52,386 nt of DNA from a virus, in IMG/VR virus record IMGVR_UViG_3300028840_005521, positions 1 to 52,386 of that record; one strand, given 5' to 3'. Below, one piece after another: positions 232 to 50,641 of the stretch. The notes below the pieces were generated by a model. The model saw nothing but the letters and a program-made list of their open reading frames with translations. It had not been told where the DNA came from and made no database searches. Every line of letters starts with the position of its first letter. Positions within the stretch are counted from its first letter, which is position 1. The position numbers and the translations under genes are program-made.

Positions 232-1152
232 CTACGTGACCACTTTTCCGCCAAGTTCCCGCTTGACCAAATGCAGGCTTCGGAGATCCCTGACCCGCAT
301 CCGGTTCTTCATGGCCCCGCCCAAGCCGATTCGCACCAGTTCCTCCATTGTGTAGTTGGGAAGATGCTGGTAAATCTGGGGAATCCGTATGGTTTCGTCG
401 CGAGTAATCAGGATCACGTCCTCGAGCTTCGCTGAATACAATTGTGCATACCCCTGTGTAGACAGTCGCTTGTCCAGAGTTCCGCTTGGGTCCTCGGCGA
501 AGTCGAAGTGTTCGGGAGGTAATGGTGGCCACCCAACCTTCCCCTCTTGGATGCCCAACGCCTTCTTGATGGCGTCCCTGAGCGTGTATTGGAGCTTGCG
601 GTTCCTCAACAGATACGCCGGGTGATATGCCGGCACCCAGATTCGCCCTTCACGCCACACAGCCCCGCCCTCAACGTCCCCAAATCGCCCCACAGGCCCG
701 ATAACAGCCTCGTAGGCACTCTTCCCCAGCAAGACGCCTACGAACGGCTGAGCGAGCTTCAGTTGCCCTTCGAGGTTCGGTCTGCACGCCTCTATTTCCT
801 CGGCGGTGGGGGTGCGATTGTCAGGCGGGCGACAACAAACAGCGTTAAGTACCATGACATCGCTTCGATCCACGTCACATTCCGCTAACGCCCTGTTAAG
901 TACCTTACCGCTCGGACCAACGAACGGTTCTCCCTGCTCATCTTCGTGACGGCCCGGCCCCTCGCCCACAATCACCAAACGGGCGAGGGTCGGGCCGTTC
1001 CAGGGAACAGGAGCCGTGCAGGATGAGAAAAGAGAACACGACTCGCAGTTGAGGATGGAATGGCGCACCCTCTGTTCCCTGTGGAGTCGAGCAAACTTAC
1101 GTCTGCTCTTCGGTGACTTGGCGTTCTTCGCAGCTTTCAGATAGTCGGGCAA
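232..1152 (-). CDS. Uracil-DNA glycosylase, family 4-like
   Basis: The 306-residue protein has the family 4 UDG motif A (GEGPGRHEDEQGEPFVG, about residues 63-79) and the motif HPAYLL. Cysteines are arranged CESC near residue 37 and C-X15-C around NAVCCRPP...EAC, as expected for the 4Fe-4S cluster of this family. The enzyme removes uracil from DNA and starts base-excision repair. The extra C-terminal 100 residues are not recognised. The TTG start at 1152 has GGAG 7 nt upstream. The start lies inside the preceding small zinc-finger gene (56-nt overlap). It stands at the end of the DNA-metabolism block. Confidence 0.9.
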   Translation of the reverse strand: MPDYLKAAKNAKSPKSRRKFARLHREQRVRHSILNCESCSLFSSCTAPVPWNGPTLARLVIVGEGPGRHEDEQGEPFVGPSGKVLNRALAECDVDRSDVMVLNAVCCRPPDNRTPTAEEIEACRPNLEGQLKLAQPFVGVLLGKSAYEAVIGPVGRFGDVEGGAVWREGRIWVPAYHPAYLLRNRKLQYTLRDAIKKALGIQEGKVGWPPLPPEHFDFAEDPSGTLDKRLSTQGYAQLYSAKLEDVILITRDETIRIPQIYQHLPNYTMEELVRIGLGGAMKNRMRVRDLRSLHLVKRELGGKVVT

Positions 1153-19399: not shown

Positions 19400-19618
19400 C
19401 TTAATTCGGGCGATTTCTCGATTGCTAATTTTCACCCTTAACGAGCTCTCCCACGACCCCAACGACCCGGCCCATAGCTTCTGGAGTAATAGGTGAGCAA
19501 TAACTTACCTTTCGGTGTAAGGCTAATGGTCAGGGTGTAGCTGCTATGTCGGGCTCAGTGATCATCGGGTCGACAGGTAGCTAGAGAGTTATTGGTAATA
19601 ATTGGAAAAGACTCAATA

Positions 19619-19813
19619 GGTAAATACTGGGAAGGGTGAGAATTATTCTCAACTACCAATGATTGCCAATCGCTCGGCGACCCAGATATTGCCAATTGAG
19701 AATGGATATCAATTGGTAAATATTTCCAGCCGGCAGAGCTCTGGGAAATACTGGAAAACGACTAGTAAATCCTGGAAATGGCAAATACTGGAAACGAATT
19801 TCCAGTAAATGCC
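19619..19813. repeat. Iteron-like 15-bp repeats
   Basis: Six copies approximate GGYAAATACTGGRAA: 19619-19633, 19715-19729 (diverged), 19743-19757, 19764-19778, 19780-19794, and an inverted copy at 19799-19813. Several TTGGTAAT/CAATTGG motifs lie between. Such arrays in an AT-rich setting are typical of replication origins or repressor-binding regions. Confidence 0.62.
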
Positions 19814-19904
19814 AACCACTCCCAGAAAATGGAAAACCCCGGCGAGGACTAGCCCCAAAACCGGGGCATAGCTCACACAATTTTTGCCCCCAAACTGCTG
19901 AAGG

Positions 19905-19985
19905 TTTACTTGTTTAGGAGGTAAGAATGGGGGGGTCATAGGGGTCGTTTACTTGTTTGGATAGTAAGCGGCGGGGTAGTAGAAT
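19905..19985 (+). promoter_or_regulatory. Paired GTTTACTTGTTT repeats and possible rightward promoter
   Basis: GTTTACTTGTTT followed by a GTAAG occurs at 19905-19926 and 19948-19969, 43 bp apart. In the second copy TTGTTT (19953-19958) is followed 18 nt later by TAGTAG (19977-19982), overlapping TAGAAT (19980-19985). It could drive the early rightward genes; the repeats could be activator or repressor sites. Confidence 0.4.
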
Positions 19986-22904: not shown

Positions 22905-22917
22905 GTCTAGCGTTGGA

Positions 22918-22982
22918 AAACCGATAACGGTATCGGTAAACCGATAACGATTATCAACACGACCGGAATTATGTGCTAGAGT
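22918..22982 (+). promoter_or_regulatory. Promoter overlapped by repeated operator sites
   Basis: AAACCGATAACG occurs at 22918-22929 and 22938-22949 (20-bp spacing, same face of the helix), with inverted partners TATCGG and TTATC after each. TCAACA (22954-22959), 17 nt and TAGAGT (22977-22982) form a reasonable promoter. The operators abut the -35, as expected for repression. Confidence 0.58.
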
Positions 22983-23025: not shown

Positions 23026-23055
23026 AACGGCCCCCATCCACCTCTGGGGGCCGTT
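23026..23055 (+). terminator. Intrinsic terminator/attenuator
   Basis: AACGGCCCCCA (23026-23036) pairs with 23045-23055 around an 8-nt loop, followed by TTGTTGT. It lies about 40-60 nt after the predicted promoter start and 37 nt before the next gene, so it would attenuate transcription entering the late region. Confidence 0.7.
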
Positions 23056-23091
23056 TGTTGTAGTATGTGGCTCTGGTGTTGGGAGGTTCGA

Positions 23092-23274
23092 ATGATCCAA
23101 AAGTCAGATCCCGTGATTGCGCCCCCGGTTGGGTGGTCCTATCACAAGCCGACATTGAAATATCGCGACGGCCTACCCGTCGGTAACTGCGGGACGCTCG
23201 GTAACTTTATGCCGGAACATATCGCCATCGAACTCGGTCTTGAGCGTTGCAAGCGATGCAACTGGAAAGTTTGA
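23092..23274 (+). CDS. Small Cys-containing protein, 60 aa
   Basis: GGGAGG lies 5 nt before the ATG at 23092, preferred to ATG 23065. The product has GNCGTLGNF and a C-terminal LERCKRCNWKV (CxxC), possibly a zinc site. Its last bases overlap the next promoter. No family is recognised. Confidence 0.62.
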   Translation: MIQKSDPVIAPPVGWSYHKPTLKYRDGLPVGNCGTLGNFMPEHIAIELGLERCKRCNWKV

Positions 23275-23297
23275 CGAGTTTGACGTTTGCGGTAATA
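23270..23297 (+). promoter_or_regulatory. Promoter for the RHH/surface-protein genes
   Basis: TTGACG (23270-23275) and TAATAT (23292-23297) are 16 nt apart. A second TTGACG starts at 23279. Transcription would begin near 23304, 38 nt before the RHH gene. Confidence 0.6.
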
Positions 23298-23341
23298 TTG
23301 GCAAGATAGTAAACTACCCCCAGTAGCCGAAAGGGTTATAC

Positions 23342-23491
23342 ATGAGCAAGAAGAGCAAGATGATCACAGTCACGGTCAAGCCAATCCCGGCGAGTCTGTG
23401 GAAGGACATCAAGCTGACAGCGGTCGCCCAGGAACGAACCGTTGCTGATGTCGTAACCGAGGCGCTAGGTAGGTACGTCAAAGACAAGTGA
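23342..23491 (+). CDS. Small ribbon-helix-helix (Arc/CopG-like) regulator, 49 aa
   Basis: The product has a beta strand (MITVTVKPIP) followed by ASLWKDIKLTAVAQE and RTVADVVTEALGRYVK, the size and layout of an RHH repressor. GAAAGGG lies 6 nt before the ATG at 23342. Its own promoter region has twin TTGACG boxes. It likely controls the surface-protein gene or the late region. Confidence 0.7.
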   Translation: MSKKSKMITVTVKPIPASLWKDIKLTAVAQERTVADVVTEALGRYVKDK

Positions 23492-23500
23492 GGTGCAACG

Positions 23501-24601
23501 ATGCTGAGGAAACTGGTAGGGACCTTCACCGCCGCCATACTGCTACTGGCAATACCGTTAGCTGCAGCCGCGGATCCAATCAACCCCAACGACCCTGATT
23601 ATTGGGAAGACAAATTCGAGCACGCCGGCCACTGCGTCAAATACGAAACACCGTCAGACACGCCCCACGGATACGAAACTGCTGATGGGTTAGCTGTAGT
23701 GCTAAACCCCATCCAGCCAGCATGGGGAGATCATTGGGAAGGACTAGTAGTCAAAGCGGCGACGGAAAACGCGGTGTACCCCCATCCCACAGCAGGGGTG
23801 GCATACTACGGAGCCAACCCTGAATATGAGGTCTCCCATTGGATCGTGTGCAAGGCCCAGGAGGAACCGCCATCAACGACCACCACCACTTCTACAACAA
23901 CCCCCCCGACTACAAGCACGACCACAACCACCACACCGGTTACTACCACAACAACCGTCGTCACCACCACCACCGCACCACCGACTACCACCACTACGGA
24001 ACCGCCTGTTACAACGACGACTGTGCCGGAACCAAAGCTGCCGACAATATGGTGTGAGTGGGACAACCGGGACAAAGACACCGGGGCACACGAGCCGATC
24101 ATTTCGGACTGGCCGATGCAGCTAGACCCAGGGCTGTTCCAGTTCGCCTACGTGGCATACGATCGGGTAACCGGTGACTACATCGGTATGCAAGAGTTCG
24201 GTCCGACCACTCCCGGCTACCACGACTCGTGGGTGGATCCATACCCGCCTGTGCCGGAAACCGGGTTCATCGTTGAGTTCATCGTCAACGGCGAGCTGTA
24301 CTACACGCTTGACGACCCGGACTGTGTGAAAGAGACACCGCCGACCACCACCTCGCCGACCACCACCTCGCTACCGCCAGTCACAACCACCACCATCCCG
24401 GTGTGCCACGACCATGACGGCGACGGGGTGAAGACCTACCAGGTCGACACCGAGAACCACAAGAAAGGCGAGGTCTGCGAACTGCCCAATACCGGTGCGG
24501 AACTGGAAGACATCGCTATCGGAGCGGGCGTTATGCTAGCTCTCGGCATGTTGGCGCTCGCAGTGGAAGCTGACCGGCGAGCAAGACGAAACGAGATCTG
24601 A
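23501..24601 (+). CDS. Secreted surface protein with LPxTG (LPNTG) sortase anchor
   Basis: The 366-residue protein has a signal peptide (MLRKLVGTFTAAILLLAIPL, cleavage near residue 24), a Thr-rich low-complexity spacer (about residues 128-175), a second beta-rich part, a short TTTSPTTTS spacer, and a C-terminal cell-wall sorting signal: LPNTG at about 328, a hydrophobic span and a basic tail (RRARRNEI). Such proteins are secreted by Sec and fixed to peptidoglycan by a host sortase. A phage gene of this kind would change the infected cell's surface, for example against superinfection (inference). GAGG precedes the ATG at 23501. Confidence 0.85.
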   Translation: MLRKLVGTFTAAILLLAIPLAAAADPINPNDPDYWEDKFEHAGHCVKYETPSDTPHGYETADGLAVVLNPIQPAWGDHWEGLVVKAATENAVYPHPTAGVAYYGANPEYEVSHWIVCKAQEEPPSTTTTTSTTTPPTTSTTTTTTPVTTTTTVVTTTTAPPTTTTTEPPVTTTTVPEPKLPTIWCEWDNRDKDTGAHEPIISDWPMQLDPGLFQFAYVAYDRVTGDYIGMQEFGPTTPGYHDSWVDPYPPVPETGFIVEFIVNGELYYTLDDPDCVKETPPTTTSPTTTSLPPVTTTTIPVCHDHDGDGVKTYQVDTENHKKGEVCELPNTGAELEDIAIGAGVMLALGMLALAVEADRRARRNEI

Positions 24602-24886
24602 TTGAAAACCTTCGACGGCATTCTCGAGGCATGGGCGAGGCGTTGGGTACTGATCGGCGAATGTGCCGGAAGTGTCTTGCTCCCCGGCGCCGTCGAAGCG
24701 CTACATCAGGAACTTGTTGAGAGCGGATGGTCCCCCCCTGCTCCCCCCCCATCCTTCCCCCTCGGCGGGGGGGGAGCCATCCAGCCGAACACCTCCACCC
24801 CACCCCAGATTCACCCCAACCAGATGACCGTGCAAGACTGCATAGCTGAAGACTATGTGGACCCGCATGTCACGCGACCGCACTGA
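24602..24886 (+). CDS. Hypothetical protein, 94 aa
   Basis: The TTG at 24602 immediately follows the surface-protein stop; GAG is 7 nt upstream. The first 45 residues look like a helix (ILEAWARRWVLIGECAG...LHQELVESGW), then a Pro/Gly-rich segment coded by long C and G runs (24734-24775), where sequencing errors or slippage could change the frame. No family is recognised. Confidence 0.5.
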   Translation: MKTFDGILEAWARRWVLIGECAGSVLLPGAVEALHQELVESGWSPPAPPPSFPLGGGGAIQPNTSTPPQIHPNQMTVQDCIAEDYVDPHVTRPH

Positions 24887-24931: not shown

Positions 24932-25144
24932 ACCCCCCTCAGCAAGTAGCGCTCTTTTCGCTGGCTGGCTCACGTCACAGTGCAGGCACCAAACCCAGAT
25001 GTCGTAGAATTTGTAGATTGGAAACTCGCCAATACGCACCTGGAACCGGTACTGCATGTATCTCCCACAGAGCGAACAGAAGCCTGGGGTGACACCTGAA
25101 GTGTCCTCCAATTCGCTTTCCCAGTTCTCGTGCATACCGTCCAT
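24929..25144 (-). CDS. Zinc-ribbon protein, 71 aa (lone leftward gene)
   Basis: FCSLCGRYMQYRF ... WVWCLHCDVSQ gives two CxxC knuckles about 27 residues apart. The ATG at 25144 has no ribosome site, but a near-consensus TACAAT stands 6 nt upstream, suggesting a leaderless transcript. It is the only leftward gene within the right arm and diverges from the terminase gene with only 18 nt between the starts. Confidence 0.58.
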   Translation of the reverse strand: MDGMHENWESELEDTSGVTPGFCSLCGRYMQYRFQVRIGEFPIYKFYDIWVWCLHCDVSQPAKRALLAEGG

Positions 25145-25162
25145 TCGGGTATTGTAGATGTG

Positions 25163-25930
25163 ATGAGAGAAGTTAACGATGTTGTCAAAGCAGCTAAACA
25201 AGTCGAGAATGCTTTCAACCTGAAACCAGATGAGAGGATCGAAGACTTGCCTGAAGTTGATTCCAGCGGCGTCAACCTGTCCGCCAGCTTCCGGGAACCC
25301 TGGGAGCGAAGCCCCGACGAAACCGAGAAGGCATGGGCCGCTTTCCAGCTTTACCGAGATCTCGGTCCGAAGCGCCGAACCAAAGATTTGCAAGACGCCG
25401 GGTTCTCCTCAGCGTCGATACATGGCTGGAGACACAAGTACGAATGGAACCAGCGCGTATCCGCCTGGGACATCGCCCAGGACCGCATCTACCAGCTACG
25501 TCGAATCGAAGCTGTCAAAGAGATGGCGGACCGTCACGCCAGTATCATTGTCGACGCCCTCGAGTCCATGTCGATCCCGTTCAAAGCGTTGCAGAGGAAG
25601 CTCAAGACCAACCCTCACGCCATCGACGAACTCAGCGAAAAGGACACGATCAAGCTGCTGGACACGGCTTCGAAGATGGCGCGCAACATGCCGGGACTCA
25701 TGTCATCCGAACGGCTGGTGCGGGGAATGCCAACAGAGATCATCGAGCACTCGGGGGAGGTGACACACACGCATGACCTACACCGAGACCAGATCGGAGA
25801 CATCCTCACAGCCCTCAGATCCGCTGGGGCTTTTACAGACGGAGGATCTAACGGAAGCGGAAGTGGCGACGATCTCGAGATCATTGAAGCTGAGATTGTC
25901 GAGTTACATACCGACGATCCCGTTCCCTAA
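25163..25930 (+). CDS. Terminase small subunit-like DNA-binding protein
   Basis: The 255-residue protein has an HTH-like region at about residues 50-95 (AFQLYRDLGPKRRTKDLQDAG then SASIHGWRHKYEWNQRVSAW), a long helical centre and a Gly/Ser-rich acidic tail. The position directly before the large terminase supports a DNA-recognition subunit. The ATG at 25163 lacks an SD, but TATTGT lies 7 nt upstream (leaderless type). It overlaps the large subunit gene by 158 nt. Confidence 0.78.
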   Translation: MREVNDVVKAAKQVENAFNLKPDERIEDLPEVDSSGVNLSASFREPWERSPDETEKAWAAFQLYRDLGPKRRTKDLQDAGFSSASIHGWRHKYEWNQRVSAWDIAQDRIYQLRRIEAVKEMADRHASIIVDALESMSIPFKALQRKLKTNPHAIDELSEKDTIKLLDTASKMARNMPGLMSSERLVRGMPTEIIEHSGEVTHTHDLHRDQIGDILTALRSAGAFTDGGSNGSGSGDDLEIIEAEIVELHTDDPVP

Positions 25931-27290
25931 GCAACACGCCTTCCTGTTGCTCTACGACACCCGGGAAGTGCTGTATGGCGGGGCTGCCGGCCCGGGCAAA
26001 AGTGAAGGGCTGTTGATGGAAGCCTCCCGCGACGTCGACGACTACCCCACCCAAGCCCTCATCATTCGCCGCACCTACAAAGACCTTGCCCAGCCCGGAG
26101 GTCTCATTCATCGATCCCACCAGTGGTGGAGAAATACTAAGGCGCATTGGGATGGCACCAACTTCACATGGCGGTTCCCATCCGGCGCAACCGTCTCGTT
26201 CGGTTACATGGAACACGAAGGCGACGAGCTGCGATACCAGGGTGGTGAATACCACGTCGTATGTTTCGATGAGCTCACCCAAATACGTGAATCCCAATAC
26301 CTCTACTTGTTCACCCGGACCAGGCGTGTCGAAGGCTTCCCCGTGCCGCCGCGTGTTCGCTCGGCTTCCAACCCTGGGGGACCCGGACACGAATGGGTGC
26401 GGAAACGCTGGAACCTCCCATACGGCCCAGCCTATCCTCTGTCGAAAACCCGCAAATACATCGGCGCTACGCTCGACGACAACCCGTATTTGGATCAGGA
26501 AGACTACGAAGCGTCGTTGCAGATTCTCGCCGACACAGCCGACGGCAACAGCGTCACATACGAACAGTTGCGACACGGCGACTGGTCGGCGCAAGCCTCA
26601 GGCGGGTTCCTGGATCCGAGACGGTTCAAGCAGATCGGCTGGAAAGACGTCCCCGAACCGCACCAGTTCGAACTCGTGTTGCGCTACTGGGACTTCGCCG
26701 CTACCCAACCGTCCGACCTAAACCCGAACCCGGACTGGACCGCAGGGGTGAAAATTGGGCGGACCCTACCCAAAGGCCGCGAAATCATCGACCCCCGGAC
26801 CGGCAACCACATCATCCCCACCCAGGACTACTACATCTTCGACATCAACCGCTTCCGCACCGACCCGGGCAACGTCGAACTGGAAGTCAAGTCAACAGCT
26901 AGGCGGGACGGCGCTGGTGTCGCTGTGTGGGTCGAACAAGAACGAGGATCTGCCGGCAAGTCGCTGGTGTGGCGATTCCAGAACGACGTGCTACCCGGCT
27001 ACCACGTCCACGGCCTCTACGCCACATCGGACAAAGAGACTCGTGCCAAAGCGGTCGCCAACCTGTCAACCTCTGGCCACATCTACCTCGTTGAAGGACC
27101 GTGGGTCGACGATTTCCTCGCCGAAGTTGGGGCGTTCCCGGAAGGCGACCACGACGATCAGATCGACGCTGTATCAAATGGGATTATCTGTCTCGAGCGA
27201 CAGAAACGGATGTACGCTGGGGGCGAAGTAAAGCGTGTCGGGGGATTGAAATCGAAACGTCAGAAGAAAGTGGGGCACTATGGCTACTGA
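25773..27290 (+). CDS. terL: Terminase large subunit
   Basis: The 505-residue protein has Walker A GGAAGPGKSEGLL near residues 71-83, Walker B VVCFDELT near 165, and RYWDFA, VWVEQERGSAGKS and GDHDDQIDAVS as RNase H-like nuclease motifs (terminase_6C). It drives DNA into the procapsid and cuts it. The ATG at 25773 is preceded by GGGGAGG at 12 nt; the large overlap with the small-subunit gene makes a later start (for example GTG near 25863) possible. Confidence 0.93.
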   Translation: MTYTETRSETSSQPSDPLGLLQTEDLTEAEVATISRSLKLRLSSYIPTIPFPKQHAFLLLYDTREVLYGGAAGPGKSEGLLMEASRDVDDYPTQALIIRRTYKDLAQPGGLIHRSHQWWRNTKAHWDGTNFTWRFPSGATVSFGYMEHEGDELRYQGGEYHVVCFDELTQIRESQYLYLFTRTRRVEGFPVPPRVRSASNPGGPGHEWVRKRWNLPYGPAYPLSKTRKYIGATLDDNPYLDQEDYEASLQILADTADGNSVTYEQLRHGDWSAQASGGFLDPRRFKQIGWKDVPEPHQFELVLRYWDFAATQPSDLNPNPDWTAGVKIGRTLPKGREIIDPRTGNHIIPTQDYYIFDINRFRTDPGNVELEVKSTARRDGAGVAVWVEQERGSAGKSLVWRFQNDVLPGYHVHGLYATSDKETRAKAVANLSTSGHIYLVEGPWVDDFLAEVGAFPEGDHDDQIDAVSNGIICLERQKRMYAGGEVKRVGGLKSKRQKKVGHYGY

Positions 27291-32269: not shown

Positions 32270-32655
32270 TGGTTGCTGAACGAGAATACGCGATGGTGAT
32301 GGCTGAGGTGGCCGCTCATGGTGGCTCGTTTTATGCGACCGCGATCGACAACAGCCAGGTGTTCAGCTACTACTTCGAGGCACACATCCGGGCAGCTGAG
32401 GAAACATACGGCTGTGACGTGTATCCGTATGCATACGGGACTGAAGGGTCGTTCCTGGTCATGGCTGCTGGTCATCATGGCTGGTGGCACGACCCGGAAA
32501 CAGCAACGTTGTATATGTCACAAGGGACCGACACCGACAAAGCGATCGTGTTCGGGTTGAACGCTGACCGGCTAGCGACGATCCTCGCAGCGGCGGCTAC
32601 TGACGGGATCAACGTGGTGCGGCAGGTCCGGTTGGACACGAACGAGGTGATCTAA
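32269..32655 (+). CDS. Hypothetical protein, 128 aa
   Basis: The product has an alpha/beta pattern with FLVMAAGHHGWWHDPETATLYM and FGLNADRLATILAAAA. The ATG at 32269 overlaps the upstream stop (TGATG) and the gene is followed at once by the next (TAATG). No family is recognised; a small virion or assembly protein is plausible. Confidence 0.6.
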   Translation: MVAEREYAMVMAEVAAHGGSFYATAIDNSQVFSYYFEAHIRAAEETYGCDVYPYAYGTEGSFLVMAAGHHGWWHDPETATLYMSQGTDTDKAIVFGLNADRLATILAAAATDGINVVRQVRLDTNEVI

Positions 32656-34286
32656 TGGCCTTCACCGTTGTAGCCAACCTCGCCAACATCGACCTCGCTG
32701 AGTCTGCGACCACCTGGTCCATCGGGTCGCTGGACGCTGACAAGTATGTGCAAGGCAACAACTCGGTCGGGTTCTACATGACGAAGAACTTCCGGGGGTC
32801 CGTAACCATCACCCCTGCCTCATCAGTGGCGTGGGCCACCGGGGACCACCTCTATTTCTGGTTAGCATCGGACGTAGCCTCCAAGACCGAGGCCAAGACT
32901 ACCGGCACCACTACCGCTTCCGGGTACACCGTTCGGGTCACCCTGGCGTCCGGTGCATACCGCGAATGGCACTTCGCCGGATCAGATGTGTGGGACGGTG
33001 GCTGGCGCTGTTTTGTGATCGACCTCGGGCACACCGGCAATGAGCTGTACGCCAGCTCCGGTACTTTCTCGTCGGCATCCAACATCGCCAGCGTCACCTA
33101 CTACGTTGACCTCTCCAATTCGGGCAACATTCGGAACGTTCCGGCCAACCACTACGGAGACGCCATCCGAGTCGGCACCGGGCTGACCGCCTACAACACC
33201 TCCGCAACCGACGCAGCATTCGACCTGGCCGATATCGCAGCGGCCGATATGGCAACCGCCAACATGTACGGCATCCTCCAGACCCAGACCAAGGGCGGGT
33301 CTGCTCTCGGATGCCAAGGCCGAATCATCCTCGGAGACAGCGGGTCCACCAACCATCTCGACTTCGACTCCCAGGGAGAGCTACTGGAGTTCCTCCAAAG
33401 GGACGGCACCGGGGCAGGCATCGTTGCCAATGCCTTGTACGGCATCGAGGTGGTAGCCAACTCGACCGGCACCGACCAGGACTTCAAGATGGGGACCAAG
33501 GTGGGAACCGGAGCCAATGCTCGTGGCCGGGACGGCACCACCATCAGATCCGGTGGCTCAGCGGTGTACTGGTACTTCGAGTCGGTCGACGCTGACCTTC
33601 ACAACTTCACCATGTATGGCTCTACCCTGAGTGGAGCAATCGGTGGTACCAACTATGGCGTAGATCTGGACACCCCAACCACCACATTCGAAGTTGCGGG
33701 CTGCGTGTTCGATAGCTGTGAGGGCGTGGTGCTAGCCGACGCTGTGGCCACCTTCTGTACCTGGCAAAACTCTGCCACCGATGCCACCACCGGGGCGCTT
33801 GTGTGGCAAGACACCGAAACCGACATCGAGAACTGCTCGTTCATCAACAACGTGAACGGTATCTACATCGGGACGTTGACCGGGGACATCACCCTTTCCG
33901 GCATGACCTGGAGCGGCAACACCTACGACATCGAGTATGAGCACACCGCAGACTGGGACGCCAACTATGACGGGACCGCTCCATCGATCAATAACACCTC
34001 TACCGGCACGTTGACGGCAGTCTCCTCCAAGACCGCCACCTTCACCCCTGTCGAGAACGGATCGGCGTTTACGATCACCAGGAACAGCGACAACTTCCTC
34101 CTGCATGATGTTTCGTCCACTACTGGAGGCCAGGTCGTGTATACCTACGACGGTGCTCTGGATGCGACAGCAGCCACGGTTCACATCATCATTGTTGGTA
34201 AAGAACCCATCGACTTTCCGTGGACATTGGCAGAGGGGACTGTCCCCGTTTCTCAAGTCACAGATCGCATCTATTCCAACCCCTAG
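32655..34286 (+). CDS. Large beta-rich virion protein, probable beta-helix
   Basis: The 543-residue protein is rich in Thr, Ser, Gly and Asn. It has a lectin-like N-terminal half (FYMTKNFRGSVTITPA, FVIDLGHTGNELYAS) and a region of short repeating strands (VAGCVFDSCEGVVLADAV, IENCSFINNVNGIYIG, DITLSGMTWSGNTYDIEY), typical of right-handed parallel beta-helices. It ends RIYSNP, as the next large gene ends RNYSNP. It is probably a capsid or neck appendage that binds glycans (inference). Confidence 0.7.
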   Translation: MAFTVVANLANIDLAESATTWSIGSLDADKYVQGNNSVGFYMTKNFRGSVTITPASSVAWATGDHLYFWLASDVASKTEAKTTGTTTASGYTVRVTLASGAYREWHFAGSDVWDGGWRCFVIDLGHTGNELYASSGTFSSASNIASVTYYVDLSNSGNIRNVPANHYGDAIRVGTGLTAYNTSATDAAFDLADIAAADMATANMYGILQTQTKGGSALGCQGRIILGDSGSTNHLDFDSQGELLEFLQRDGTGAGIVANALYGIEVVANSTGTDQDFKMGTKVGTGANARGRDGTTIRSGGSAVYWYFESVDADLHNFTMYGSTLSGAIGGTNYGVDLDTPTTTFEVAGCVFDSCEGVVLADAVATFCTWQNSATDATTGALVWQDTETDIENCSFINNVNGIYIGTLTGDITLSGMTWSGNTYDIEYEHTADWDANYDGTAPSINNTSTGTLTAVSSKTATFTPVENGSAFTITRNSDNFLLHDVSSTTGGQVVYTYDGALDATAATVHIIIVGKEPIDFPWTLAEGTVPVSQVTDRIYSNP

Positions 34287-34370: not shown

Positions 34371-35972
34371 ATGGCGAAGATTACCGATCCTGACCAGTTG
34401 AATTTCGGCACTGAAATAGTGGTCGACACTACTGGTCCCAAAACCATTCAGCTAGTGGCGACCGGGAACCTGTCGAACGCTTCTCCAGCTGCCGTTAATG
34501 GTGTCACGATGCAGGCTGTCTATTCAAAGACAGTCGAGGGCTGGGAATCCACCCTTGCTTATCGTCGCCACTCGTTCCCGATCAAGATGTATACCCCAAA
34601 CGAGGGAGAGTGGATCAACTCCTGGGCGCCAGATGACGTCACCACCAACGAGCTGATCCGTGACGCCGGGATGATCGAGACCGACGGTACCTGGCACATG
34701 GGTCTGTTCACCCTGGGAGATTTCCCAGCAGACACAGACCAGGGATACTACGTCCAGTCTGGTGCTCTCGACGGGACCGTGGTCAACTTTGACCATACCG
34801 GTGAGATCAACGAGATGGTGGAGATCAAGGGAACTGGTGGTACCCCGGACAACACGTCCTACCTCGGTGTGTTCTATCGGACCCGCCCCAACTACTACGA
34901 CTTCTACGAAGTGGTCTCCGGGCTGCAGCTCTCTGCCCTGACCGCTAAGCGCGAATCGATTCCTCTCGGATCCACACCAGATCCACAGATCACCGAGTCG
35001 GACGCCAACATCGACGCCAACACGCCATACACCGGCATGACGCTCGACTTCCTGACCGGCGAGTACGGACTCGAAGGTGCGGCAGGCGGTGCAGAGACGT
35101 GGGCCATCTCCCAGGTGTATGCTGCTGGAGATGCCATTGCCGACTCGAGCGGTAGATACTTCCGGGTCACCGTCGGCGGCACATCGGCTGGTAACGACTC
35201 TGACCTGGCCGGTGGTTCGGACACGGGTGTGACCTACGAGGTCCACCCGGGTGAGCGCCAGATTGGATCGACCTACTATCTGTTCTCCCGGATCATCGAC
35301 GGCAACTTCGGATCTTTGTCTGAGTGTTACCAGTGGGGATGTCGCCAGGAGCGGCAAACCGGTGACATCAACGACGACATCAACCTTGACGGATTCGGAA
35401 CCGTGAAGGGCCAGCTCTGTCCGCACCTGTTCCAGTACCAGGCCGCCGGGTTCGACGGCACCATCCTCAAGCTGGCCGAAGGTGTCATGCTTGATGACCC
35501 GGCAGCAGCCGAAGCTAACAACATCGTCTTCTACCCGCACTCACTTGATGGCACCTACCCCAACTCAGGCAATGGTGTGCAGTACCCGTTCACGGTCAAC
35601 ATCCAGGTGCTCGATGCATCATCCAGCAACAACCTGGCCGGTGGCCGACTCACTTTGTTCTTCGCCAACGACGATGCCGGCGACAACCTCGGGTATGACT
35701 TCGACACCGACAATGCCATCGTGATGCAGGAAGACGACCTGACTCCGATCGACATCGCATCGTTCACGGCTGCTGAAATGAACTTCACCTACGACTATGA
35801 CGTGAACACCCAGCGAGGCACTGGCTCGGATGGCACACCTGTTCCTGTCAAGGCAGTGGCGATTAACGCAGGATCCTCTGAACCTATTGTGGTGGATGCC
35901 ACACTGACCAGAATCGACAACGTTGCGATTCGGATCAGTGCCCAGGACGACAGGAACTACTCGAATCCGTAA
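34371..35972 (+). CDS. Large virion structural protein, 533 aa
   Basis: The N-terminal part has MQAVYSKTVEGWESTLAYRR followed by HSFPIKMYTP, a pattern that recurs in the 36336-37061 protein (WSDLIEDWESDVVLRGHTFPI). The body is beta-rich with many Asp/Gly/Thr residues, and the end is RNYSNP. Its position between head and tail genes suggests a virion surface protein. The start at 34371 has only AAAGGAC at 8 nt. Confidence 0.65.
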   Translation: MAKITDPDQLNFGTEIVVDTTGPKTIQLVATGNLSNASPAAVNGVTMQAVYSKTVEGWESTLAYRRHSFPIKMYTPNEGEWINSWAPDDVTTNELIRDAGMIETDGTWHMGLFTLGDFPADTDQGYYVQSGALDGTVVNFDHTGEINEMVEIKGTGGTPDNTSYLGVFYRTRPNYYDFYEVVSGLQLSALTAKRESIPLGSTPDPQITESDANIDANTPYTGMTLDFLTGEYGLEGAAGGAETWAISQVYAAGDAIADSSGRYFRVTVGGTSAGNDSDLAGGSDTGVTYEVHPGERQIGSTYYLFSRIIDGNFGSLSECYQWGCRQERQTGDINDDINLDGFGTVKGQLCPHLFQYQAAGFDGTILKLAEGVMLDDPAAAEANNIVFYPHSLDGTYPNSGNGVQYPFTVNIQVLDASSSNNLAGGRLTLFFANDDAGDNLGYDFDTDNAIVMQEDDLTPIDIASFTAAEMNFTYDYDVNTQRGTGSDGTPVPVKAVAINAGSSEPIVVDATLTRIDNVAIRISAQDDRNYSNP

Positions 35973-50233: not shown

Positions 50234-50641
50234 ATGACAACCGGATCGCCCTCAACCCCACCTCACACCGACATTGCTTCGGCGATTTTCGCTTGGGTGG
50301 AAGAGAGTCGCGAGTACCGGACGCAAACGCACAGCGATCTTTGTTCGTCGATTGAGCAATTGAACGTTACGACTCTTGAAATGAATGGGTTGATGCGCAG
50401 CCTCGAGGTAGCGTTAACCGGAGACGAACTAGGCAACCCAGGTATCGTGGCCAGACAAAACAGCCTCCAAGGTCAAATAGACCAGGATCGTGCCGATCGG
50501 AAGAAAGCCGACGAACGGCTTCATGGCCGCATCGACGAACTCGAGAAGTGGCGCAGCAAGTTGATAGGTGTCGGGATCGGAATCGGCGCCGTATCTGGGA
50601 CAGTTGTGGCTATACTCACCCAGGTGTTCAACAGCGGGTAA
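50234..50641 (+). CDS. Coiled-coil membrane protein, holin/antiholin candidate
   Basis: The 135-residue protein has a soluble N-terminus, a coiled coil (about 75-110, RADRKKADERLHGRIDELEKW) and one C-terminal membrane span (LIGVGIGIGAVSGTVVAILTQV). The XhlA-like layout and the position just before the endolysin suggest a lysis role. The ATG at 50234 has TACTGT 7 nt upstream and no SD (leaderless type). Confidence 0.62.
   Translation: MTTGSPSTPPHTDIASAIFAWVEESREYRTQTHSDLCSSIEQLNVTTLEMNGLMRSLEVALTGDELGNPGIVARQNSLQGQIDQDRADRKKADERLHGRIDELEKWRSKLIGVGIGIGAVSGTVVAILTQVFNSG

What the first reader, a model, noticed from the sequence alone, without database searches (positions are those of the whole stretch)
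23501..24601. Phage-encoded LPNTG cell-wall-anchored protein
Signal peptide, Thr-rich stalks and a complete sortase signal show a protein meant for the host surface, coded with its own small RHH regulator directly ahead of the packaging genes. It is not a virion gene by type and could block superinfection, alter adhesion or mask receptors.
Basis: partly seen in the sequence, partly recalled or inferred. Interest (0 to 1): 0.65.

Follow-up and report, generated by a model that had tools for sequence, protein, structure and literature searches.

The report
Phage gene for wall-anchored surface protein
A phage of (probably) actinobacteria carries an optional gene for a protein that the infected bacterium would export and fasten to its own cell wall; such genes are known from a few prophages, but here the genome shows no integrase, so the protein may change the cell surface during an ordinary killing infection.

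Summary
Window 23501-24601 (+) encodes 366 aa: signal peptide, two Thr-rich stalks, three two-cysteine segments and a complete C-terminal sorting signal (LPNTG, hydrophobic segment, Arg-rich tail). It is the only such ORF in the window; none arose in 60 simulated windows. The window carries a 144-bp exact end repeat, so it is probably a complete 52-kb siphophage genome; its capsid and portal proteins resemble actinobacteriophages.

One close relative was found, a 53-kb IMG/VR genome (67-77% identity in TerL, portal, capsid). At the same slot it has RHH, then a methyltransferase gene, then terS. It has no LPXTG or Thr-rich ORF. The window keeps only the methyltransferase's C-terminal tail in the small ORF after the LPXTG gene. 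So this is an exchangeable accessory gene ("moron"), and the RHH is not its private regulator. No integrase or resolvase was found.

Best reading: an accessory gene whose product the host's Sec system and sortase display on the infected cell. Blocking adsorption is the most likely role, but unproven. No homologues were found; a link of the N-terminal domain to actinobacterial surface proteins is only suggestive.

The parts
23026..23056 (+). Stable hairpin (12 pairs in the fold) followed by a T-rich stretch; likely intrinsic terminator separating the RHH/LPXTG genes from upstream genes
   Evidence: perfect inverted repeat; RNA fold -23.8 kcal/mol, z -4.5
23342..23491 (+). RHH (Arc-like) small DNA-binding protein, 49 aa; marks the slot, not private to the LPXTG gene
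   Evidence: phrog_6506 Arc-like repressor E 1.6e-4; 53% identical ortholog in relative L005 4339-4590
23490..23495 (+). Ribosome-binding site GAGGTG, 5 nt before the ATG
   Evidence: sequence
23501..24601 (+). Sortase-substrate surface protein, 366 aa
23501..23572 (+). Signal peptide aa 1-24 (by eye), cleavage AAA|DP
   Evidence: sequence
23573..23866 (+). N-terminal domain aa 25-122, Cys45 and Cys117; ends in a SHWIVC motif
   Evidence: sequence; weak similarity to the N-terminal domain of an LPRTG-anchored protein of an actinobacterial genome, L038
23867..24025 (+). Thr-rich stalk 1, aa 123-175
   Evidence: mixed Thr codons
24026..24334 (+). Middle domain aa 176-278, Cys185 and Cys275, probably all-beta
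   Evidence: low-confidence model, pLDDT 58.7, four strands; no significant fold match
24335..24397 (+). Thr/Pro-rich stalk 2, aa 279-299
24398..24481 (+). Membrane-proximal Cys302-Cys326 segment with a DHDGDG (DxDxDG, calcium-loop-like) motif
   Evidence: sequence
24482..24496 (+). LPNTG sortase motif, aa 328-332
   Evidence: Gram_pos_anchor 15.4 bits, below the 20-bit cut-off
24497..24598 (+). Hydrophobic segment and Arg-rich tail of the sorting signal
24602..24886 (+). Small ORF (94 aa) starting right after the LPXTG stop; its C-terminal residues 63-90 match the C-terminal tail of the relative's methyltransferase, so it is probably a remnant of the replaced gene
   Evidence: tblastn E 2.8e-4, 46% over 28 columns at the collinear position; alignment
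25130..25930 (+). Terminase small subunit
   Evidence: phrog_6299 E 5e-19
25773..27290 (+). Terminase large subunit
   Evidence: phrog_979 E 2e-90, Pfam Terminase_6N/6C

Best explanation
The ORF is an accessory (moron-type) gene of an actinobacteriophage-like siphophage. It encodes a surface protein that the host would export by Sec, cut at LPN-T|G by a host sortase, and join covalently to its wall. A Thr-rich, possibly glycosylated stalk would hold two small domains away from the wall. The gene occupies an exchangeable slot between a conserved RHH gene and terS; in the relative the slot holds a methyltransferase gene. Shown from sequence: the domain plan, the sorting signal, the slot exchange, and the absence of a recognisable integrase or resolvase. 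Inferred: export, anchoring, disulfides, expression together with the late (packaging) genes, and function. Most likely function: changing or masking the surface of the infected cell so that further phages, including released progeny, adsorb less well. I give this role about 35% within the surface-protein reading; adhesion or aggregation about 25%; the rest unknown.
For: All parts of a sortase substrate are present in order, and this is the only such ORF in the window, against 0 in 60 simulated windows. GC by codon position is that of a coding gene, and the Thr codons are mixed. The six cysteines fall as two per segment, which fits oxidative folding outside the membrane (inference). The relative IMGVR_UViG_3300003886_000006 is syntenic with the window, with an exact 91-bp end repeat. 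It has RHH, methyltransferase, terS at this place and no LPXTG or Thr-rich ORF. The small ORF after the LPXTG gene keeps the methyltransferase tail. Capsid and portal matches are almost all actinobacteriophages. No tyrosine integrase or resolvase was found, while controls rang. The gene is co-directional with terS and terL.
Against: The Pfam anchor model is below its cut-off. No homologue of the whole protein was found in IMG/VR, phages, plasmids or GTDB genomes, so there is no conservation to show that the protein is maintained. The host and its sortases are unknown. No data bear on expression, display or function. Only one relative was available for the slot comparison.
Confidence: 0.8

Rival explanations
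1. Adhesion or aggregation factor: the displayed protein makes infected cells stick to each other or to surfaces, helping local spread of progeny, as the prophage-encoded SasX promotes aggregation.
For: Domain-stalk-anchor plan is that of fibrillar adhesins, whose adhesive domain usually lies at the N-terminus (PMC9210967); SasX precedent (PMC10232760); N-terminal domain weakly resembles that of an actinobacterial LPRTG protein.
Against: No adhesive domain recognised. No lysogeny genes recognised, so there would be little time for a colonisation benefit.
Confidence: 0.22
2. Captured host surface-protein gene with no present benefit, a passenger in a slot open to recombination.
For: Gene present in one of two related genomes, non-homologous replacement, remnant ORF next to it.
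Against: Intact long ORF with good RBS, coding-type GC by position and mixed Thr codons; phage genomes lose useless DNA quickly (general knowledge).
Confidence: 0.15
3. Virion or lysis-related protein that happens to carry an LPXTG-like end.
For: Located next to packaging genes.
Against: Signal peptide plus complete sorting signal target it out of the cytoplasm where virions are built. The endolysin lies elsewhere, at 50568. No PHROG match.
Confidence: 0.04
4. Lysogenic-conversion gene of a temperate phage, expressed from the prophage like SasX.
For: Known LPXTG cargo in PhiSPbeta-like prophages; own hairpin terminator upstream and candidate promoter.
Against: No tyrosine integrase or resolvase hit in the window or its relative, with positive controls; DNA-metabolism set (UDG, ERCC4-type nuclease, helicase, exonuclease) and no repressor recognised.
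Confidence: 0.12

Closest known systems
SasX, LPXTG protein of PhiSPbeta-like prophages of Staphylococcus (PMC10232760; Li et al. 2012 cited there)
   Same: Phage-borne gene for a cell-wall-anchored surface protein, absent from related phages or strains
   Different: Firmicute host and integrated prophage; here actinobacteriophage-type genome without recognised integrase. Sequences were not compared
Actinobacterial LPXTG surface proteins (example L038: signal peptide, Cys-bounded N-terminal domain, LPRTG anchor)
   Same: Same order of parts; N-terminal domains share W..LV.KA....Y and SH.I.C motifs
   Different: Similarity is marginal (22.7 bits; best of 500 shuffles 22.3; found with a query written partly from the window); no Thr stalk in L038; chromosomal, not shown to be phage
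Superinfection-exclusion proteins of prophages that block receptor binding (reviewed in PMC9863714)
   Same: Surface location and possible effect on adsorption
   Different: No recognised homology was found in the family searches run; function untested; members not compared directly
GamR, LPXTG receptor of phage gamma (PMC9863714)
   Same: Shows that wall-anchored LPXTG proteins can be contact points for phages
   Different: Host protein and receptor, not phage-encoded
Relative phage IMGVR_UViG_3300003886_000006
   Same: Syntenic genome, RHH gene and terS/terL around the slot
   Different: Methyltransferase (Methyltransf_11 1.2e-7) instead of the LPXTG gene

Membership tests
Sortase-anchored (LPXTG) surface proteins | N-terminal signal peptide | tested here: met
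   Read from sequence: basic n-region, 16-residue hydrophobic core, AAA cleavage site; no dedicated predictor available
Sortase-anchored (LPXTG) surface proteins | LPXTG motif near the C-terminus, hydrophobic segment, basic tail | tested here: met
   LPNTG at 328, 34 residues to the end, hydrophobic peak 2.35, RRARR tail; 0 in 60 simulated windows
Sortase-anchored (LPXTG) surface proteins | Pfam PF00746 score above curated cut-off | tested here: not met
   15.4 versus 20 bits; the score is a detection threshold rather than a defining feature, and the actinobacterial LPRTG protein L038 also scores only 14.6
Sortase-anchored (LPXTG) surface proteins | Covalent linkage to the wall by a sortase | not testable with these tools
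   Needs expression in a sortase-positive host
Prophage-borne LPXTG cargo (SasX type) | Carried by a temperate, integrating phage | tested here: not met
   No integrase or resolvase match, positive controls present
Superinfection-exclusion proteins | Blocks adsorption or DNA entry of related phages | not testable with these tools
   No functional data; no family match
Actinobacteriophage-like siphovirus | Capsid, portal and tape-measure genes related to actinobacteriophages | tested here: met
   All 152 capsid-matching records and nearly all 518 portal-matching records are actinobacteriophages; tape measure found

The most novel reading that the evidence does not exclude
A virulent (non-integrating) phage makes its host covalently display a phage-encoded, Thr-stalked protein on the cell wall during the lytic cycle, to block adsorption of competitors and of its own progeny to dying cells.
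Probability: 0.22. Interest if true: 0.7.

Novelty: new variant of a known kind. Interest (0 to 1): 0.42.

Why it matters
Phage-encoded wall-anchored proteins are documented here only in prophages of Firmicutes that change colonisation by the lysogen (SasX). A sortase substrate in a phage without recognised integration genes would suggest that host surface remodelling can pay off within one lytic cycle. It would also give a simple, testable route for superinfection exclusion in monoderm hosts.

Tried and rejected
(1) Whole-protein homologues in IMG/VR, INPHARED phages, PLSDB plasmids and GTDB genomes: none. (2) Separate N-terminal, middle and C-terminal segments against up to 296 Actinomycetota genomes: only chance-level hits (0.004-0.008). 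(3) A recalled actinobacterial domain (aVivKgG...SHv.FC) does exist in that phylum, but a profile built from five members does not separate the window domain from shuffles (rank 6 of 201), so I do not claim membership. A second recalled form, written partly from the window's letters, found L038, an LPRTG protein with a similar N-terminal domain; similarity is marginal and the query was biased. (4) Structure prediction without an alignment: poor for the N-terminal domain (pLDDT 44), middling for the middle domain (58.7); no Foldseek match below E 0.068. (5) Further relatives by tape measure, TerL, capsid, helicase and RHH: only the same relative or distant ones. (6) Short sorting-signal queries against phages: no match, but such queries are probably masked or too short, so this says nothing. 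(7) Papers on phage LPXTG proteins in actinobacteria: none found. (8) Virion or lysis role: rejected on the export and sorting signals.

Full report
What is there. The ORF at 23501-24601 on the + strand is 366 aa with an ATG start and a GAGGTG ribosome-binding site 5 nt upstream. Its order of parts is: signal peptide (aa 1-24); N-terminal domain with Cys45 and Cys117; Thr-rich stalk (aa 123-175); middle domain with Cys185 and Cys275; second Thr/Pro stalk (aa 279-299); short Cys302-Cys326 segment with a DHDGDG motif; LPNTG (aa 328-332); hydrophobic stretch; tail RRARRNEI. No other ORF in six frames has a sorting signal or a Thr-rich run. A strict filter gives one hit in the real window and none in 60 Markov simulations. 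The Thr codons are mixed in proportions like those of other phage genes, so the protein sequence, not a DNA repeat, seems to be what is kept. The Pfam anchor model scores below its cut-off, but so does the anchor of the clearly LPRTG-bearing protein L038.

Where it is. The window is a virus record whose first and last 144 bases are identical, which suggests a complete genome of about 52 kb. TerL, portal, scaffold, capsid, tape measure and an amidase endolysin are all recognised. All 152 phage records matching the capsid and nearly all 518 matching the portal are phages of actinobacteria, so an actinobacterial host is likely; it is not proven. No tyrosine integrase (PF00589) or resolvase (PF00239) is found in the window or its relative, while the controls ring, and no repressor was recognised among the proteins scanned. 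The phage may be virulent, though an unrecognised lysogeny system cannot be excluded.

The slot. The one close relative found is IMGVR_UViG_3300003886_000006 (53,367 bases; exact 91-bp end repeat). It shares 67-77% identity in TerL, portal and capsid and is broadly syntenic. There the order is RHH, a methyltransferase gene (Methyltransf_11 E 1.2e-7), terS, terL. It has no LPXTG-like or Thr-rich ORF anywhere. In the window the RHH ortholog is 53% identical, then comes the LPXTG gene, then a 94-aa ORF. The last residues of that ORF (QIHPNQMTVQDCIAEDYVDPHV) match the tail of the relative's methyltransferase (DIHPDQMTVDDYIDPDV; tblastn E 2.8e-4). The simplest reading is that a methyltransferase gene was replaced by the LPXTG gene, leaving its tail. 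The direction of change cannot be told from two genomes. It follows that the RHH gene belongs to the slot and is not a dedicated regulator of the LPXTG gene.

Expression. A stable hairpin with a T-rich follow-up at 23026-23056 probably ends upstream transcription. A weak promoter-like match lies at 23271-23299. The scan found no terminator between there and terS. The gene may therefore be read with the late operon, which is inference.

Relatives of the protein. None were found for the whole protein in four collections. The N-terminal domain shares a pattern (W..LV.KA....Y ... SH.I.C) with the N-terminal domain of L038, an actinobacterial protein with signal peptide and LPRTG anchor. BLAST gives E 4e-4 for the single comparison, and 0 of 500 shuffles reach the score, though the best shuffle is close. 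Because L038 was found with a query partly written from the window, this is only suggestive. Models without an alignment are too poor for fold assignment.

How it probably works. Host Sec exports the protein, a host sortase cuts at LPN-T|G and links it to the wall, and the stalk presents the two domains outside. The most likely benefit in a lytic cycle is less adsorption of other phages and of progeny to infected cells and debris. Adhesion or aggregation is the main rival. Nothing here tests function.

Novelty. Prophage-encoded LPXTG proteins are known (SasX, PMC10232760), and LPXTG proteins can be phage receptors (GamR, PMC9863714). The variant here is a sortase substrate in an actinobacteriophage-like genome without recognised integration genes, in an exchangeable slot ahead of the terminase. 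No paper on such a case was found in the library searched, which holds only open-licence papers.

Noticed in passing
window 19593-19814: In the intergenic region between the leftward and rightward gene blocks, five imperfect copies of a 16-nt repeat (TGGGAAATACTGGAAA) plus inverted copies; could be an origin or regulator-binding array.
   Followed up: no
window 19904-19968: Two copies of GTTTACTTGTTTAGGAGGTAAG 43 nt apart in the same intergenic region (82% identical).
   Followed up: no
window 32655-34286 and 34371-35972: Two large proteins (543 and 533 aa) after the capsid gene with no PHROG or Pfam match and no tblastn match in the close relative; both end in YSNP, suggesting a shared C-terminal tag or exchangeable capsid or fibre proteins.
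   Followed up: no
window 22915-22949: Direct repeat AAACCGATAACG twice, 20 nt apart, overlapping a palindrome CGGTATCGGT/ACCGATAACG; looks like an operator.
   Followed up: no
window 235-1152 (-): Uracil-DNA glycosylase superfamily gene (E 3e-32), unusual but known in phages; conserved in the relative (62%).
   Followed up: no
window 25773-27290: TerL is closest among named phages to archaeal phages psiM2 and psiM100 (40-41%), ahead of Gordonia phages (35%), although capsid and portal point to actinobacteriophages.
   Followed up: no
L005 4605-5333, C-terminus, and window 24602-24886, C-terminus: Shared tail peptide IHPxQMTVxDY.DPDV at the end of two otherwise different ORFs just before terS.
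   Followed up: partly
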